Part shown: positions 10,278 through 19,349 of the stretch, piece after piece
Layout of the letters: every line of letters starts with the position of its first letter
Numbering within the stretch: the first letter of the stretch is position 1
Assembly (NCBI GenBank): GCA_902727855.1
Contig: CACVAS010000170.1
Span: forward strand, 62,001-126,000
Length of the DNA: 64,000 bases
Origin: an uncultured Sulfurovum sp.
GTDB taxonomy: Bacteria; Campylobacterota; Campylobacteria; Campylobacterales; Sulfurovaceae
Reading direction: 5' to 3'
Program-made: the position numbers and the translations under genes
Notes under the pieces: model-generated
Told to the model about the DNA's origin: nothing
What the model saw: only the letters and a program-made list of their open reading frames with translations
Database searches by the model: none

Positions 10278-11536
10278 GATATAAAATATTATTGGTGATT
10301 GCTTCACTATTATTTTTAAGTGGTTGTGGAGATTTACTGGGGCCTGACCGTAATGGATGGAAGTCATCTCAAAAAAAAGAATTTTTACAAATTTTAAAAG
10401 ATGATACCTATATGTCTCTATGTAATCAAGAAGCTCTATATACTAGAGTAAAATCTTCAAATAACTCTCGTTTGATGAGTCAACTGCTTGTGTCATATAC
10501 AAAAAATCTTGCTAATTCCTGTATTGATTTAAAAAGTTTTAAACACTATCAAGAAGCCAAGAAAACACAAAAAATCAATACACATTATGATACCAATCAA
10601 GAAAAAATAAATAAATATAGTATCATGCATAAATTGCGTACAGGTCAGACAATTAAACAAATTTTACAGCCTTATGTGCCTAAGTCACCACAATTTATAG
10701 CGTTGAGTAAAAGATACCGTGCATTAAAACAGTCAGGTGCTAAAGTGACAGAAGATCAGTTGCGTAAGATACGTCTAAATATTGAGAGAACAAAACTCAT
10801 GAAAAATGACCTTGGTGTCAATTATGCTCTCATAAATGTACCAGAGTTTACAGTGCGTATGATTGAAAGTAATGTGACAAAGTTAAGTTTTCCTGTTATT
10901 GTTGGAAAGAAAAATTTACAAACCCCTATATTTACAGAGCGCTTAAAATATGTACAAATCAACCCACAATGGAATGTGCCTGATTCTATTATGCGTGAAA
11001 GTTATATTTATGATCTTATGAAAAATCCAAATTGGCTAGAAGAAAATAGAATGCAGTTACATCAAGACTCCTATGATTTAAATTCTCCACAAGTTGACCC
11101 TGCGAGTGTAGATTGGAATTTATATATAGAAGATCAAAAATGTTACATCCCTTATAAGCTTGTTGAAGTTCCTTCTGCTAGAAATGGTTTAGGTCGGGTA
11201 AAGTTTATCTTTCCTAATAAACACTCTGTCTACATGCATGACACGCAAACAAAAAAGTTATTTAAAAGAAGTGTACGAGCCTATAGTCATGGGTGTATTC
11301 GGTTAGCTAAACCTATGACATTGCTCAATTATATTACAGTGAACTATACAGATAAATCGCTTGAACTTGTTGACCAGTGGTATAAATCATTCAAGACAAG
11401 GCATTTAATTTTAACTAAGCCTTTGGAAGTACATACCGCATATTTTACTGCCTATGTCAATGAATTTGGACAGTTAAAGTTATATAATGACATTTATGGG
11501 TTTGATGCATCCCAAAAATTAAATTTTCGATTGTAG
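10274..11536 (+). CDS. Lipoprotein L,D-transpeptidase (YkuD domain, YcbB-like scaffold)
   Basis: A 420-residue lipoprotein: the signal ends in the lipobox LSGC (Cys18). A helical scaffold segment (TIKQILQPYVPKSPQFIAL) precedes the YkuD catalytic domain, as in LdtD/YcbB enzymes. The active site is visible: H322 and SHGCIR with H339, C341 and R343. It would form 3-3 peptidoglycan cross-links or attach proteins to the wall, in the periplasm. The start codon overlaps the flavoprotein stop (ATGA). The following hydrolase and murF genes are on the same strand within 10 bp each, suggesting one envelope operon. Confidence 0.9.
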   Translation: MRYKILLVIASLLFLSGCGDLLGPDRNGWKSSQKKEFLQILKDDTYMSLCNQEALYTRVKSSNNSRLMSQLLVSYTKNLANSCIDLKSFKHYQEAKKTQKINTHYDTNQEKINKYSIMHKLRTGQTIKQILQPYVPKSPQFIALSKRYRALKQSGAKVTEDQLRKIRLNIERTKLMKNDLGVNYALINVPEFTVRMIESNVTKLSFPVIVGKKNLQTPIFTERLKYVQINPQWNVPDSIMRESYIYDLMKNPNWLEENRMQLHQDSYDLNSPQVDPASVDWNLYIEDQKCYIPYKLVEVPSARNGLGRVKFIFPNKHSVYMHDTQTKKLFKRSVRAYSHGCIRLAKPMTLLNYITVNYTDKSLELVDQWYKSFKTRHLILTKPLEVHTAYFTAYVNEFGQLKLYNDIYGFDASQKLNFRL

Positions 11537-14249: not shown

Positions 14250-15044
14250 ATGAAAGCACTATGGATGTTGTTATTAACACTGAATATACTATGGGGTACA
14301 GAGATTAAACTTACAAAGACTCAGGCAAATTTTATAGCCAAAAAAGTATGGCAAAATGAAGGAGCAGGTAAAGACAAATATTTGGTTTGGTGGAACAAAG
14401 GTGAAGACTTTGCAAGTGTAGGCATAGGACATGCCATATGGTTTCCAAAAGGACATACAGAACGCTTTAGAGAAGTCTTTCCTATGATGTTAAGTTACAT
14501 GGAGTCAAAAGCTGTTCAAATGCCTACATGGCTTAACAGTCAAACAGATTTTCCGTGGCAGACAAAAGAGGCATTTTTTGAAGCCAAGAAGTCTAAGTCT
14601 AAAAAATATATGGAACTTTTTAATTTTTTAAAAAGAACTATGCCTTACCAAGCATCATTTATGGCAGAACGTTTAAACAAAGCACTACCTCAAATGTTAG
14701 AGACTATCACAAGTCATAAAAAAGCCTCACTCATAAAACGTAGGTTTAATCATATTTTATATTATACCAATGGAACCATAGATGAAAGAGGACTCTACAT
14801 ACTCCTCGACTATACAAATTTCAAAGGTGAGGGTACGCTTAAAAGTGAACGTTATAATGCTCAAGGGTGGGGACTTATGCAAGTGTTAGAGCATTTAGAT
14901 GAAAGTAACCCAAATAAATATAAAGCATTTTCAAATAGTGCAAAAGCCATGCTAAGTAGACGCATCAAAAACTCACCTCCTGCACGTGGAGAAGAGAGAT
15001 GGAGAAAAGGTTGGGGTGTAAGGTTAGACACCTACTGGAAGTAA
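14250..15044 (+). CDS. Secreted lysozyme-like hypothetical protein
   Basis: A 264-residue protein with a short signal peptide (MKALWMLLLTLNILWG). Near the N-terminus it reads VWQNEGAGKDKYLVWWNKG followed by SVGIGH. The Glu-Gly, the aromatic stretch and the G-I-G-H box are arranged like the catalytic E...GxGH region of GH24 lysozymes. The rest is helical and ends in Trp/Arg-rich sequence (RWRKGWGVRLDTYW), resembling the end of lysozyme-like folds. I therefore suggest a periplasmic glycosidase or a relative that has lost activity. It borders the integron relic. The motif argument is mine and is not proven. Confidence 0.6.
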   Translation: MKALWMLLLTLNILWGTEIKLTKTQANFIAKKVWQNEGAGKDKYLVWWNKGEDFASVGIGHAIWFPKGHTERFREVFPMMLSYMESKAVQMPTWLNSQTDFPWQTKEAFFEAKKSKSKKYMELFNFLKRTMPYQASFMAERLNKALPQMLETITSHKKASLIKRRFNHILYYTNGTIDERGLYILLDYTNFKGEGTLKSERYNAQGWGLMQVLEHLDESNPNKYKAFSNSAKAMLSRRIKNSPPARGEERWRKGWGVRLDTYWK

Positions 15045-15169: not shown

Positions 15170-15303
15170 GAAGAACGACTAAGTTCAGAGACAAGGTAAT
15201 AATCTAACGGTTTTAATATTTGAACTTTTATATATCTTTATACTACATATAAAAGCTTAATATTTTTAGACAATTACCTTGTTGTCTCCTACGATTTGTT
15301 ATC
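15170..15303 (-). repeat. attC-like recombination site at the end of cassette 3 (toxin-antitoxin cassette)
   Basis: Read on the minus strand just after the toxin stop: GATAACAAATCGTAGGAG corresponds to the R''/L'' arm shared with the two other sites. After AT-rich stem sequence (CTTTTATAT pairing with ATATAAAAG) comes AAATATTAAAACC|GTTAGAT (R' at 15208-15202), matching the integron core GTTRRRY. A second, outer pairing (ACAAGGTAAT at 15191-15200 with 15273-15282) ends nearer 15170. The two alternatives leave the outer limit uncertain. The site sits where the last attC of a cassette array should be. Confidence 0.6.
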
Positions 15304-15631
15304 ACTTCCGTTTAATTAATCTTTGAAATAGTATATCTTCTAAATTTCTACTTGAATCTGCTACTAATAAAATATAAACTTTTGTAGTATCTATCTTATA
15401 TATTATTCTCCATCTTTTATGAATTACTTCCCTATATTTCAAAATACCTATTTGTTGTAATTCTGGCACAATCCTTTTTCTTTCTGGGAAAAAATATAAA
15501 TCATTACACTCTTTTTTAATTTCAAAAAATATTTTTTTTGCTATATTTAAACTATCTGTTTTAATATATTCAATAATTGATTCTAAGTCAAATTGGGCAC
15601 TTTTTGTCCATATAACTTCATACTTTTTCAT
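15302..15631 (-). CDS. RelE/ParE-family toxin
   Basis: A 109-residue toxin. The start MKKYEVIWTKSAQFDLESIIEYI matches ParE/RelE (KxxAxxDLxxIxxYI), and YREVIHKRWRIIYKI plus the end-strand VYILLVADSSRNL match the conserved core. ParE toxins poison DNA gyrase, while RelE members cut mRNA; which applies cannot be read here. The ATG lies one base after the antitoxin stop, so the pair is co-translated. The pair lies between two attC-like sites, so I read it as an integron cassette, a common setting for toxin-antitoxin genes. Confidence 0.87.
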   Translation of the reverse strand: MKKYEVIWTKSAQFDLESIIEYIKTDSLNIAKKIFFEIKKECNDLYFFPERKRIVPELQQIGILKYREVIHKRWRIIYKIDTTKVYILLVADSSRNLEDILFQRLIKRK

Positions 15632-15632
15632 T

Positions 15633-15905
15633 TTAACTAAACAATTTTTGCACTAAATCATTAAACATCTCTTCTTGTTCAATAACATTATTGTTTTCAA
15701 TATCGTTTTCACCTTGAACAATTAATTTTAATAAGTTTAAAGAATTTTGTAAATTTTCATAGCTTTTAATATCTTGGACAACTGCTTTTGCTTCACCATT
15801 TTGTGTTATGATTATTGTTCTTTGATTATCATTTACATTATTTATTACATCAGCTGTTTTTGCTTTTAAATAACTAATTGGTTTTATATCTTGGCTTAAA
15901 TACAT
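15633..15905 (-). CDS. Phd/YefM-family antitoxin
   Basis: A 90-residue antitoxin. The N-terminus (IKPISYLKAKTADVINNVND) and TIIITQNGEAKAVVQDIKSYENL match the DNA-binding domain of Phd/YefM proteins, which also repress their own operon. The acidic C-terminus (ENNNVIEQEEMFNDLV) should wrap and neutralise the toxin. AAAGGAAAATAA precedes the ATG. The upstream sequence starts at a GTTGTTC core of an attC-like site (15992-15986), so the operon promoter must lie in the 80 bases inside the cassette or further upstream in the array. Confidence 0.9.
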   Translation of the reverse strand: MYLSQDIKPISYLKAKTADVINNVNDNQRTIIITQNGEAKAVVQDIKSYENLQNSLNLLKLIVQGENDIENNNVIEQEEMFNDLVQKLFS

Positions 15906-15985
15906 TTATTTTCCTTTAAATGGAAGATGATATATTGTATCAAATTTAGATTTAATTTGGTATTAAAGTAGAGCTTTTTTCTGTA

Positions 15986-16051
15986 GAACAACGTTTAAAA
16001 TGAGCAATCAAAAAACCGCGTGCGGGTTTTTGATTGGTCTCCTCTGATTTA
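15986..16051 (-). repeat. attC-like recombination site at the end of cassette 2
   Basis: On the plus strand GAACAAC|GTTTAAAATGAG is followed by an imperfect stem (16005-16019 pairing with 16022-16036, one mismatch) and then TCTCCTCTGATTT. Both flanks match the site at 16539-16610: the R'-side AACGTTTAAWWTGAG differs at two positions, and the L''-side TCTCC...GATTT is shared by all three sites. The R'' core is damaged: the expected GTTA after GATTT reads AACCC, as if three bases were lost. The hairpin could also end transcription. Confidence 0.7.
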
Positions 16052-16525
16052 ACCCAATCCTAACCATGCGACTAAGGCTGCTAGAATTAAGCCAGTACCA
16101 ATTGTCATAACCCATGGATTGTTTAGGAGGGAAAAAATAAAGTTTGATGCTTCATGACCAGGAGCTCTTGTAATGTACTGAGATGTTACATCTTCACCTG
16201 CTACTGCAATATCTCCAGGACTGTAACCATATCCGGGACTGATTATTGTTATTGAATCTGACTGTCTGTTTAGTTCCTCAATCCTCTTAAAACTTTTCTC
16301 TTGAATAATAGAACGCTCGTCTTCACTTTTTTTGTTCGTGCGTATAATTTGAACGCTTTTAATATTTCCAATGCGAACCACGTCTTTGTCACACAATATA
16401 TCTTTACCCTTTTTATATAGTCCAACAAACTTTGTTTTTAATTCTTGTTCTGACAAATCATCTAGTACGCACTGAGGATCTTTTGGCGAGTCTGTGAATG
16501 TAACCAATACATGGTAATAAGGCAT
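16049..16525 (-). CDS. Cassette-borne hypothetical protein with C-terminal membrane anchor
   Basis: A 158-residue protein I do not recognise by function. The start follows CAGGAGTATAA. The N-terminal half is soluble (MPYYHVLVTFTDSPKDPQ; then DLSEQELKTKFVGLYKKGKDILC, a strand-rich pattern). A charged helix (KKSEDERSIIQEKSFKRIEELNRQ) and a Gly-rich link precede a single C-terminal hydrophobic helix (PWVMTIGTGLILAALVAWLGLG), so it is probably tail-anchored. It begins 14 bases after a GTTAGC core and ends inside the next attC-like site, exactly as a gene cassette would. Confidence 0.75.
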   Translation of the reverse strand: MPYYHVLVTFTDSPKDPQCVLDDLSEQELKTKFVGLYKKGKDILCDKDVVRIGNIKSVQIIRTNKKSEDERSIIQEKSFKRIEELNRQSDSITIISPGYGYSPGDIAVAGEDVTSQYITRAPGHEASNFIFSLLNNPWVMTIGTGLILAALVAWLGLG

Positions 16526-16538
16526 TTATACTCCTGTA

Positions 16539-16610
16539 CGCTAACGTTTAATTTGAGAAATAGTTTTGCCCGCTAGGGTAAACTATTTCTCTCCAAGATT
16601 TTGTTAGATA
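16539..16610 (-). repeat. attC (59-base-element-like) site at the end of cassette 1
   Basis: The best-preserved site of the three. On the minus strand TATCTAAC (R'', 16610-16603) directly follows the stop codon of the upstream gene. AAAATCTTGGAG then leads into a perfect 12-bp stem (16555-16566 with 16580-16591), followed by CTCAAATTAAAC|GTTAGCG (R'). R'' is the exact complement of GTTAGATA at the 5' edge of the same cassette (17095-17088), which is the expected relation for one mobile cassette. Length about 72 bp is within the usual attC range. Confidence 0.8.
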
Positions 16611-17054
16611 TTAGACAATTAAATCACCAAAGCCCCAAACAAATGTTCCTATTATTACTAGTGTATGAGCTAATACTTTTATAATTCTTTGATTAGGAGA
16701 TTCTACAGGATATCCAAAAACTTCCTTTTCATTATTTATAACTCTAGAAATGATATTCATTTCAAATATTTCTCTTTGTTTTTCTTTAACTTTAAAAAGT
16801 TTATATTCGACAATTACTGCTAATAAAACCATAATTGATCCAGAACGTGCAAATAATCCAGTAGAGTCGTTTAGTAATGTATTATTATGATATGCAAAGA
16901 TTACAATTAATACTCCCACTAATAAAAGTGACCAGTCTTTCCATGACCAGATTAGTGTAGCAATTGTAATAAATAAAGGTTCTTTTCTTCCATTCATTGC
17001 AATATCTATCATTCTTTTTTGTTGTGGCGATAATTCTTCATTGTCATTTTTCAT
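16611..17054 (-). CDS. Cassette-borne three-helix membrane protein
   Basis: A 147-residue protein of unknown function with three predicted membrane segments (LLLVGVLIVIFAYH; SGSIMVLLAVIVEYKLF; VLAHTLVIIGTFVWGFG). Charged stretches lie at the N-terminus (MKNDNEELSPQQKRMIDIAM) and between helices two and three (KVKEKQREIFEMN). The start follows AAAGGATTAATATTAT. It is the first gene after the presumed attI, and its stop codon touches the R'' core of the attC, a tight fit typical of cassettes. Composition is more AT-rich than flanking housekeeping genes. Confidence 0.75.
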   Translation of the reverse strand: MKNDNEELSPQQKRMIDIAMNGRKEPLFITIATLIWSWKDWSLLLVGVLIVIFAYHNNTLLNDSTGLFARSGSIMVLLAVIVEYKLFKVKEKQREIFEMNIISRVINNEKEVFGYPVESPNQRIIKVLAHTLVIIGTFVWGFGDLIV

Positions 17055-17317
17055 ATAATATTAATCCTTTAAAATAATGAATACTTGTATCTAACTCTAT
17101 ATAGAAAAATAAATGAATACTTAAAATGTTCGTTTATTTCTAAGAAGTATGTCAATATGACATACTTTTTACCATTTTTAGAATTTTGAGCTACTATCCT
17201 TACATATATGGTGTGTTTTTAATGGCTAATTAGCCAATATTTGAACACTTTGTCCGTTTATTTGTTCTTTATACGATAAAAACACATTTTGTTACTTAAA
17301 ATACAAAGGAGTTTACT
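17055..17317. promoter_or_regulatory. Presumed attI / promoter region between cassette array and integrase pseudogene
   Basis: Non-coding, 263 bp. The cassette boundary core reads TATCTAAC on the plus strand (17088-17095), i.e. GTTAGATA on minus. It also holds a perfect 10-bp inverted repeat (AAGTATGTCA at 17145-17154, complement at 17158-17167), a 14-bp palindrome TGGCTAATTAGCCA (17223-17236), a 13-base direct repeat with one mismatch (TGTTCGTTTATTT at 17127, TGTCCGTTTATTT at 17251), and a 10-bp inverted repeat (17212-17221 with 17277-17286). Such paired sites would suit integrase binding and divergent promoters, but which element does what is inference. Confidence 0.55.
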
Positions 17318-17740
17318 GTGAGTATTAAGAAAAAATTATTGGATATTGTGCGTGACAAGATACGTTTTAAACACTATATATTTTTTCACAATAAAGAGCA
17401 TCTTGTAGAGATGGGTAAAGATGAGATCTAAGCGTTTTTAACACATTTGGCTACAGAAAAGCAAGTAAGCCCATCAACACAAAATCAAGCATTTAATACG
17501 ATACTGTTTCTCTATAAAGAGGTATTGGGAGTAAATGTAAGCGAGTGGAATATACAAGCTCTGAGAGCTCAAGAACGGAAACATATACCTGTTGTTCTCA
17601 CTAAAGAAGAAGTCCATAAAGTACTGTAAAACCTTGATGGCATATATAAACTTGTAACGACACTTATGTACGGATGTAGGCTTAGAATGAATGAAGTGTT
17701 AAGTCTACGTATTAAAGATATTGACTTTGGCTTTGATTAA
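17318..17740 (+). pseudogene. intI: Integron integrase (IntI-like tyrosine recombinase), decayed
   Basis: Starts at GTG 17318 after AAAGGAG. The frame reads LLDIVRDKIRFKHY, then AFLTHLATEKQVSPSTQNQAF, LFLYKEVLGVN, HIPVVLTKEEVHKVL, NLDGIYKLVTTLMYG and LRMNEVLSLRIKDIDFGFD. These match IntI proteins in order (compare LTHLA..STQNQA and LPVVLTxxEV). Damage: about 15-19 residues missing after KHY, in-frame stops at 17429-17431 and 17627-17629, a Gly-to-Arg change beside the first catalytic Arg, and truncation at 17740 before the HxxR and Tyr boxes. It cannot be an active recombinase. It diverges from the cassette array, the canonical integron layout. Confidence 0.87.
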
Positions 17741-17748
17741 CTCTATAT

Positions 17749-18030
17749 TTAGTATAGCTCATCTAAAGCTTGAATTTCACGTTTTCGGATTATTTTATCA
17801 GTCATTTTGTCAATCACTATGTAGAAAGGTAAGTAGTCTTTTTCATGATTTGAATACACTATTCTTCCTTTTTTATTTTCTGAATCAAGGTTGAATTGAA
17901 ATTTCATTATTCGTTCTGCTTCTTGGAGTGTCATTCCTAGTTCAATTTGAGACCAACACTTTTTCAAACGGTAATGTCTCATAAACTTAGAAGGTCCAAG
18001 TAATAACAGTGATGACATGAATCTACTCAA
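17749..18030 (-). CDS. Small hypothetical protein next to integrase relic
   Basis: A 93-residue protein I do not recognise. I accept the TTG start at 18030 because GGAGG stands six bases upstream; an ATG at 18018 is the alternative. The first residues are hydrophobic (MSSLLLLGPSKF) but too short to be a clear signal. IELGMTLQEAERIMKFQF recalls the GMTxxEV motif of small BamE/SmpA-type proteins, and KDYLPFYIVIDKMTDKIIRKRE is strand-like. The gene ends 9 bp from the truncation point of the integrase, so it marks the right edge of the integron relic. Confidence 0.6.
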   Translation of the reverse strand: MSRFMSSLLLLGPSKFMRHYRLKKCWSQIELGMTLQEAERIMKFQFNLDSENKKGRIVYSNHEKDYLPFYIVIDKMTDKIIRKREIQALDELY

Positions 18031-18281
18031 GAGAGACCTCCAGTATAACTATTTATTGAATAAAAATTATATCATAACTAATTCTAGTGACTAGGTCATA
18101 AGTCTGTGGAAATTACTATGATTTATGTACACACCACTTATACATGAGCCACATGTATATGGTATTTAGTACTAGACATGTTGGAGCTGAGATAAATAAA
18201 GGTAGGGTGGTCAGCTCTTTAGATATGTAAATTAATTATGTTTCAGCTAAAATAGCACTCATTATAACTAGAAAGAACCTT

Positions 18282-19349
18282 ATGAAATTAATCTACCCTA
18301 TAAACATTAAAAATGAATTTGTTTTTAATGCCTCCGCGCGTGACTTTACTGTAGAAGAGATACCTCTATACGAATTTACAGGTGAGGGTGAACATTTAGT
18401 ATTGCATGTACGTAAAAAAGAGATGACAACATGGGAGATGTTAGATGTCATCTCAAATCATCTAGGTATACGTAGACGAGACATGGGGTATGCAGGGCTT
18501 AAAGATAAACATGCAATGACCATGCAATATATCTCTATATTGGCCATACATGAAGAGAAGTTGAAAGAGTTTACGCATGATAAAATTAAAATACTCTCTA
18601 CCATACGTCATAACAATAAGATACGTGTAGGGCACCTAAAAGGAAACCGTTTTAATATACGTCTTAAAAAAGTACTTGGTGTACAAAAAGACAAACTAGA
18701 CTCAGTACTTAAATGGATAAAGAAAAATGGTGTACCTAACTACTTTGGTAACCAGCGTTTTGGCAATGATGGTGACAACTGGGTAGATGGAAAAAAACTC
18801 ATAGAGGGTACACTCAAAATGCGTGACCGAAAGAAGAGAGAGTTTTTGATGGGTTCTTACCAATCTTATCTGTTTAACAATTGGCTATCTCGTCGTATGG
18901 AAATCAACCATTTGTTAGAAAAGTTTACAGAAAATGAGACAGAACAGGTGTTAGGACTAGAAAAAGGTTCGCTTCAAGGAACAAAGTCTCAACCTAATTT
19001 TTACAAACTTTTAGAAGGTGATGTGATGATGCATTATCCTTATGGACGTATTTTTAATGTAGAAAATTTAGAAGAAGAAGCAAAACGTTTTGAGACCAAA
19101 GACATTGCTCCTGCTGGACTACTTCCTGGCAAAAAAATGAAAACATCCGAATCTGTCTCTGGCATCATTGAAGCACCTTTCATAGAAGAGATGAACCTCA
19201 ATGGTACAAGACGTTATGCTTGGATACAAGTGAGTGAAATCACTAAAAACTATGTTGAAGAAAAAGCCCATTATGAGTTGAGTTTTGTGCTTCCTAAAGG
19301 GTGTTATGCTACCAATGTGTTAGATGTATTACGGGGTGAAGCACTTTAG
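18282..19349 (+). CDS. truD: tRNA pseudouridine synthase D
   Basis: Makes pseudouridine 13 in tRNA. Its 355 residues carry the TruD catalytic motif GYAGLKDKHAMTMQ with the nucleophile Asp75, the N-terminal FxVxExP-like motif (ARDFTVEEIPLYEFTGEGEH), RIRVGHLKGN-type sequence, and NYFGNQRFG (phosphate/RNA contact). FTENETEQVL and PAGLLPGKKM lie in the TruD insert. The gene overlaps the 3' end of the next, convergent gene by 4 bp. The region before the ATG (18031-18281) is non-coding and I see no clear element in it beyond a TATAAC -10-like box. Confidence 0.96.
   Translation: MKLIYPINIKNEFVFNASARDFTVEEIPLYEFTGEGEHLVLHVRKKEMTTWEMLDVISNHLGIRRRDMGYAGLKDKHAMTMQYISILAIHEEKLKEFTHDKIKILSTIRHNNKIRVGHLKGNRFNIRLKKVLGVQKDKLDSVLKWIKKNGVPNYFGNQRFGNDGDNWVDGKKLIEGTLKMRDRKKREFLMGSYQSYLFNNWLSRRMEINHLLEKFTENETEQVLGLEKGSLQGTKSQPNFYKLLEGDVMMHYPYGRIFNVENLEEEAKRFETKDIAPAGLLPGKKMKTSESVSGIIEAPFIEEMNLNGTRRYAWIQVSEITKNYVEEKAHYELSFVLPKGCYATNVLDVLRGEAL

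What the first reader, a model, noticed from the sequence alone, without database searches (positions are those of the whole stretch)
15170..17740. Decayed integron: intI pseudogene, attI region and three cassettes in a Campylobacterota-like genome
The integrase-like frame at 17318-17740 matches IntI in order (LTHLA..STQNQA, PVVLTKEEV, LRxxEVLxLRxKDIDF) but carries two in-frame stops, an internal deletion and a truncation. It diverges from a minus-strand array of gene, hairpin, gene, hairpin, toxin-antitoxin, hairpin. The three hairpins share arms (TCTCC...GATTT on one side, AACGTTTAA..TGAG on the other in two of them), and cores read GTTAGAT or GTTAGC. That is the full canonical layout. Integrons are well known in gamma-, beta- and deltaproteobacteria; how often they occur in this phylum needs a search. 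The cassettes are frozen unless an integrase elsewhere acts on them.
Basis: partly seen in the sequence, partly recalled or inferred. Interest (0 to 1): 0.8.

Follow-up and report, generated by a model that had tools for sequence, protein, structure and literature searches.

The report
Dead chromosomal integron in Sulfurovum-like bacterium
A gene-capture element (integron) in a Sulfurovum-like bacterium has lost its integrase but still carries three captured gene cassettes; such elements, and their decay, are already known, so this is a well-documented but ordinary fossil.

Summary
The pseudogene matches the integron-integrase profile at 142 bits; the best non-integron family, XerA, reaches 50. 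It is 81% identical to IntI of three relatives. It is longer than reported: it runs from 17318 to 18230, because the C-terminal end of intI survives beyond a replaced middle. It ends 51 nt before truD; an open intI in relative G036 ends 54 nt before truD. A covariance model trained on 17 attC sites of relatives only finds attC1 (63.9 bits) and attC2 (26.6 bits) on the predicted strand. attC3 is a weak hit there (14.7 bits, E 1.1) but the best two-arm hit in the window (29.7; best of 100 simulated sequences 24.8). The attI core block of relatives is not intact, and attC2's R'' box is damaged. IntI exceeds the family cut-off in 34 of 397 genomes of the phylum. Integrons in Campylobacterota and intI pseudogenes are in print (PMC8618304, PMC2426708). 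Verdict: a real, decayed sedentary chromosomal integron; a new member of a known kind; modest interest.

The parts
17318..18230 (+). intI pseudogene: 15-codon internal deletion, four in-frame stops in the N-terminal half, middle replaced, C-terminal end retained
   Evidence: TIGR02249 142 bits; comparison with relatives
17759..18093 (.). block inside the pseudogene with no detectable similarity to intI; the minus-strand ORF 17749-18030 lies mostly in it
   Evidence: that ORF matches only the window's own genome among 100 searched
17096..17317 (-). intI-proximal attI-side region, 84% identical to relative G020 over about 224 nt
17089..17095 (-). core-like GTTAGAT, close to where similarity to relatives' attI side stops; start of cassette 1 (inferred)
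   Evidence: relatives' 19-nt core block not found with up to 3 mismatches
16611..17054 (-). cassette 1 gene, 147 aa, unknown function (looks membrane-embedded by eye)
   Evidence: no match in 397 phylum genomes other than its own
16539..16609 (-). attC1
   Evidence: CM R2 63.9 bits; similar to attC sites of G056, G041, G039 and G052
16049..16525 (-). cassette 2 gene, 158 aa, unknown function
   Evidence: one homologue besides its own in 397 phylum genomes: a decayed copy in G243, another family, beside attC-like sequence
15986..16054 (-). attC2, R'' box damaged by a 3-nt gap; overlaps the stop of the cassette 2 gene
   Evidence: CM R2 26.6 bits; G243 counterpart shows the box whole
15633..15905 (-). 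cassette 3, Phd/YefM antitoxin
   Evidence: PF02604 54.4 bits; TIGR01552 48.8 bits, over its cut-off
15302..15631 (-). cassette 3, ParE toxin
   Evidence: PF05016 54.8 bits; TIGR02385 20.6 bits, below its cut-off
15170..15304 (-). attC3, long form (135 nt), end of the array
   Evidence: two-arm score 29.7, best in the window; CM R2 partial, 14.7 bits, E 1.1 over the window
18282..19349 (+). truD, downstream neighbour of intI, as in G036
14250..15044 (+). conserved gene of unknown function on the other flank; in G019 it is followed by one gene (TRAP-transporter-like by eye) and then truD, without IntI

Best explanation
A sedentary chromosomal integron just upstream of truD in a Sulfurovum-like lineage, whose integrase has decayed. 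In the past (inferred from the family) IntI recombined folded single-stranded attC sites with attI and lined up cassettes pointing away from intI. What is left is three cassettes: a gene for a small protein that looks membrane-embedded, a gene of unknown function, and a Phd-ParE toxin-antitoxin pair, each followed by an attC. The integrase lost codons, gained stops and had its middle replaced; the attI core is no longer intact and the R'' box of attC2 is damaged. The cassettes are now held as ordinary chromosomal genes. Shown: sequence, homology, site-model hits, and the intI-truD neighbourhood in G036. Inferred: past activity, age at this site, present immobility, cassette expression.
For: IntI profile 142 bits against 49.9 (XerA), 32.7 (XerD) and 29.4 (XerC); 81% identity to IntI of G057, G020 and G025; attC model from relatives only, E 3.8e-12 and 0.0019 for two sites over the whole window, E-values rough; two-arm test for attC3 and attC1; intI ends 51 nt before truD here and 54 nt before it in G036; attI side 84% identical to G020, similarity stopping beside a GTT core; decayed cassette 2 homologue beside attC-like sequence in another family; ParE- and Phd-ParE-like genes near attC sites past IntI in G052 and G016.
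Against: attC3 is a weak CM hit and rests on the two-arm test, whose arm lengths I chose after seeing the alignment. attC2 is absent from the two-arm list. The relatives' attI core block is not found. The IntI-specific patch falls in the lost middle, so it cannot be checked in the window. Cassette 1 has no homologue in the 397 genomes searched, so its mobility is unproved. IntI beside truD was seen in only 4 of 30 truD loci examined (window, G036, and G009 and G016 at 2.7 and 4.0 kb), and part of the intI-truD spacer is also present in G019, which has no intI there, so the age at this site rests mainly on G036.
Confidence: 0.94

Rival explanations
1. Remnant of a phage or Xer-type tyrosine recombinase beside unrelated genes whose terminator hairpins look like attC.
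For: The hairpins at 16555-16591 and 16002-16039 are strong stems; one scores as terminator-like on the plus strand, and the region has 3 terminator-like sites where shuffles give 0.9; Xer profiles also match.
Against: IntI beats the best Xer family by 92 bits. The sites match relatives' attC in R and L boxes as well as in the stem, all three on one strand.
Confidence: 0.02
2. The array is still mobile in trans: an intact integrase elsewhere in the genome, missing from this draft, moves the cassettes.
For: The assembly has 170 contigs; several relatives' intI lie near contig ends; further attC matches exist on contig C117.
Against: No match over the family's cut-off in the draft, completeness 100%; attI core not intact and attC2 damaged.
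Confidence: 0.07
3. Two separate remnants brought together: attC cassettes without an integrase (a CALIN) that ended up beside an intI relic.
For: The relatives' attI core block is missing and similarity breaks about where the cassettes begin.
Against: Divergent order and intI-to-cassette spacing resemble relatives' integrons, and attC1 is of the same type as attC sites of genomes with intI, including G052 whose IntI is over the cut-off.
Confidence: 0.07

Closest known systems
Sedentary chromosomal integrons of Campylobacterota (Sulfurovum, Sulfurimonas and relatives)
   Same: IntI family, divergent array, attC type; truD as neighbour in G036
   Different: Integrase, attI core and attC2 are damaged here
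intI pseudogenes ('pseudo-integrons') of Nemergut et al. 2008 (PMC2426708; abstract and passages seen)
   Same: intI inactivated by stops and deletion while the element remains; the paper reports nearly one third of its intI genes as pseudogenes
   Different: Here the middle of the gene is also replaced by unrelated DNA
CALIN elements (clusters of attC lacking an integrase; PMC8618304, passages seen)
   Same: attC-bounded cassettes without a working integrase; loss of a recognisable intI is one of the origins that paper cites
   Different: The dead intI is still beside the array, so the origin is visible

Membership tests
Integron | integron-type integrase gene | tested here: met
   TIGR02249 142 bits and 81% identity to relatives' IntI; as a pseudogene only, below the curated cut-off of 265 bits
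Integron | IntI-specific additional patch (motif recalled) | tested here: inconclusive
   relatives carry a stretch that fits it; in the window it would fall in the replaced middle
Integron | attC sites after the cassette genes, one orientation | tested here: met
   minus strand: 63.9 and 26.6 bits, and 14.7 bits partial with E 1.1; the last supported
Integron | attI site next to intI | tested here: inconclusive
   intI-proximal region conserved; relatives' core block not found; at most a diverged TATATAGAGTT remains before the core (read by eye)
Integron | array diverging from intI | tested here: met
Active integron | intact integrase | tested here: not met
   stops, deletion, replaced middle
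Mobile integron (class 1-5 type) | carried by a transposon or plasmid | not tested
   a 170,687-base contig with truD as neighbour suggests chromosome; no transposon or plasmid search was made
Phage or Xer integrase remnant | best profile match to Xer or phage integrase rather than IntI | tested here: not met
   (NCBIfam); Pfam gives only the general tyrosine-recombinase domains

The most novel reading that the evidence does not exclude
In Sulfurovum-like bacteria and their order, integrase loss is recurrent and cassettes outlive it, scattered over the chromosome: of 100 genomes (the window's own included), 24 have attC matches without any IntI match at E 1e-20 or better, and one single-contig genome (G024) has attC sites in at least five separate places with no IntI over the cut-off. 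In the window, cassette 1 may have joined at a secondary G|TT site inside attI, or a deletion of about 40 nt may have removed the core.
Probability: 0.35. Interest if true: 0.45.

Novelty: new member of a known kind. Interest (0 to 1): 0.27.

Why it matters
It confirms from raw sequence a fossil integron in Campylobacterota, shows damage to all three component types (intI, attI, attC), and points to a lineage with both intact and dead integrons in which the tempo of integrase loss could be measured. It does not change what an integron is.

Tried and rejected
Rfam at gathering thresholds gave only a tRNA in the window; no attC family was hit. A strict RYYYAAC/GTTRRRY scan reported none of the three sites. 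Model R1 was built with the outer pairs set two columns off, my error; over 30 sources it still gave attC1 28.1 bits (E 0.0026) and attC2 15.1 bits (E 3.6), but I rely on R2. Of R2's 17 training sites, 7 come from the scans from the R1 search; the R1 search also covered the window, but window hits were not used. One row of A3 (L041:12438-12509) was dropped because it distorted the alignment. The other candidates, some of a different attC-like type, went into no model (13 sites were aligned only). attC2 is not in the two-arm list.

PADLOC found nothing for the five proteins of the region; PHROGs matched toxin and antitoxin, and cassette 1 and orf 17749-18030 only at E about 0.01. Sigma-70-like sites are fewer than in shuffles (10 against 16.9), so no cassette promoter is claimed. 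Orf 17749-18030 matched none of the other 99 genomes; I treat it as a likely chance frame in foreign DNA. Shared spacer sequence before truD was first taken as evidence of common placement; G019 has part of it without intI, so I dropped that argument. E 1e-20 is not specific for IntI: 4 of 14 control genomes match at that level, none over the cut-off.

Paper searches: (no paper). From these I saw passages of PMC8618304, PMC10295459, PMC2426708 and PMC9024848; all other papers only as listings. I make no claim that this locus or this attI block is unpublished.

Full report
Observation. The minus strand from 17054 to 15170 holds a gene (147 aa), a hairpin, a gene (158 aa), a hairpin, a Phd antitoxin and ParE toxin, and a hairpin; the plus strand from 17318 holds a broken tyrosine-recombinase frame.

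The integrase. The frame, read with X at stops, scores 142.1 bits with TIGR02249 (integron integrase) and 90.6 with NF011946 (also integron integrase), against 49.9 for XerA, 32.7 for XerD and 29.4 for XerC. The best BLAST identities, 81%, are to IntI of G057, G020 and G025. Lesions: 15 codons missing near the N terminus, with an 8-nt direct repeat at the ends of that stretch in the two relatives tested, and four in-frame stops in the profile match. Before them about 335 nt have no detectable similarity to intI, where relatives have about 393.

Place. The pseudogene ends 51 nt before truD; in G036 an open intI frame ends 54 nt before truD. In G009 and G016 IntI lies 2.7 and 4.0 kb from truD in the same orientation; the G016 match ends at profile position 279 of 315. 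Of 30 truD loci (L082-L111, flanks of 1.5 kb or less), IntI was seen in 2, the window's own and G036. In 8 further stretches reaching 3.1 to 7.7 kb upstream of truD (G019, G012, G007, G022, G003, G020, G031, G006) none was seen. In G019 the flanking gene 14250 and truD enclose one gene, TRAP-transporter-like by eye, and no IntI; part of the spacer before truD is shared even there. So placement beside truD is a minority state, and its age rests mainly on G036.

attC sites. Model R2 was built from 17 attC sites of eight relatives; none comes from the window or its genome. Over the whole window it gives four matches at E up to 10: attC1 63.9 bits, attC2 26.6, the opposite strand of attC1 18.3, and the 5' half of attC3 14.7 (E 1.1). 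In the 2.5 kb region without filters the same four lead, and the next is 9.7 bits. attC3 has a longer stem than the model. A test of the two arms alone, trained on the same 17 sites, puts attC3 first (29.7) and attC1 second (27.8) in 64 kb; the third is 15.3, and the best of 100 Markov-simulated sequences is 24.8. attC2 is not in that list: its R'' box has a 3-nt gap. In G243 (another family of the order) a decayed homologue of cassette 2, 77% identical over 279 alignment columns with 10% gaps, is followed by the first half of an attC with the box whole; a complete attC (70 bits) lies further upstream with another frame between. This supports, but does not prove, cassette movement between families. 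A ParE-like gene (31% identity) lies between two attC sites of G052, and a Phd-ParE-like pair (52% and 45%) about 8 kb past IntI in G016, between attC matches.

attI. The 224 nt next to intI are 84% identical to G020, and 82% to G031 over 221 columns; similarity stops within a few nt of GAG|TTAGAT. Relatives go on for about 40 nt to a conserved block ending AATAAATAGTT, seen in all 10 relatives printed. Its longer form GTTCSTTGAATAAATAGTT is absent from the window with up to 3 mismatches; CTTGAATAAATAGTT is exact in 20 of 226 loci held, some overlapping. In the window TATATAGAGTT precedes the core (8 of 11 letters shared, by eye), so a deletion leaving a diverged core is as possible as full loss.

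The rest of the genome. Apart from the pseudogene the best IntI-profile match is 60 bits, against a cut-off of 265. Other attC matches: C117 with 43.9 and 33.5 bits, plus 22.6 bits directly after a YefM-YoeB-like pair (identified by eye); C170:50152, 31.9 bits; C30, 21.7 bits. The draft has 9% contamination, so C117 may not belong to the same organism.

How common. IntI is over the curated cut-off in 23 of 100 genomes and matches at E 1e-20 in 39 of 100, the window's genome among the latter; at that E-value 4 of 14 control genomes also match, so only the 23 are firm. In the phylum sample 34 of 397 are over the cut-off, 39 of 397 match at E 1e-60, and 0 of 14 controls. attC by R2 at E 0.001: 54 of 100; eight of these genomes supplied training sites. 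Comparing the lists by hand: 30 have both, 24 attC only, 9 IntI match only. None of the 24 supplied training sites; G029, G050 and G058 rest on one weak match each, and many are drafts in which intI could be missing. Of the 9, G085 is probably another recombinase. In five of the 24 with one to five contigs, 0 of 5 are over the cut-off, though G050 keeps short C-terminal matches; in G024 attC sites lie in all five separate stretches that I fetched at listed hits.

Print. PMC8618304 (passages seen) lists Campylobacterota among phyla with integrons. PMC2426708 (abstract and passages seen) finds integrons in epsilonproteobacteria and nearly one third of intI genes as pseudogenes. PMC10295459 (passages and Table 1 seen) lists two CALINs in Sulfurovum sp. 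NBC37-1. In PMC9024848 (passages seen) the words 'epsilon' and 'campylobacter' do not occur in the held main text. The kind is therefore known; the locus is one more member.

Mechanism. Past cassette capture by IntI at attI and attC is inferred from the family; present immobility is inferred from the broken parts. The toxin-antitoxin cassette may have helped to keep the array, as proposed for other integrons (recalled), untested here.

Noticed in passing
L116:7768-8472 and 11123-11193 (G000:C117:160767-164192): Small attC cluster elsewhere in the same draft genome, with a YefM-YoeB-like pair (by eye) between two attC matches; one search reports no IntI match on that contig.
   Followed up: partly
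L119:1501-1570 (G000:C170:50152-50221, about 12 kb before the window): Lone attC match of 31.9 bits at the end of a 131-aa minus-strand frame.
   Followed up: no
upstream of intI in relatives, e.g. L040:1843-1857, L045:5303-5317: A conserved attI block, CTTGAATAAATAGTT, exact in 20 of 226 loci held (some loci overlap).
   Followed up: partly
L228-L232 (G024): Single-contig genome with attC sites in five separate stretches and no IntI over the cut-off.
   Followed up: partly
window 17749-18030, minus strand: 93-aa frame mostly inside the replaced middle of intI; no match in the other 99 genomes searched.
   Followed up: yes
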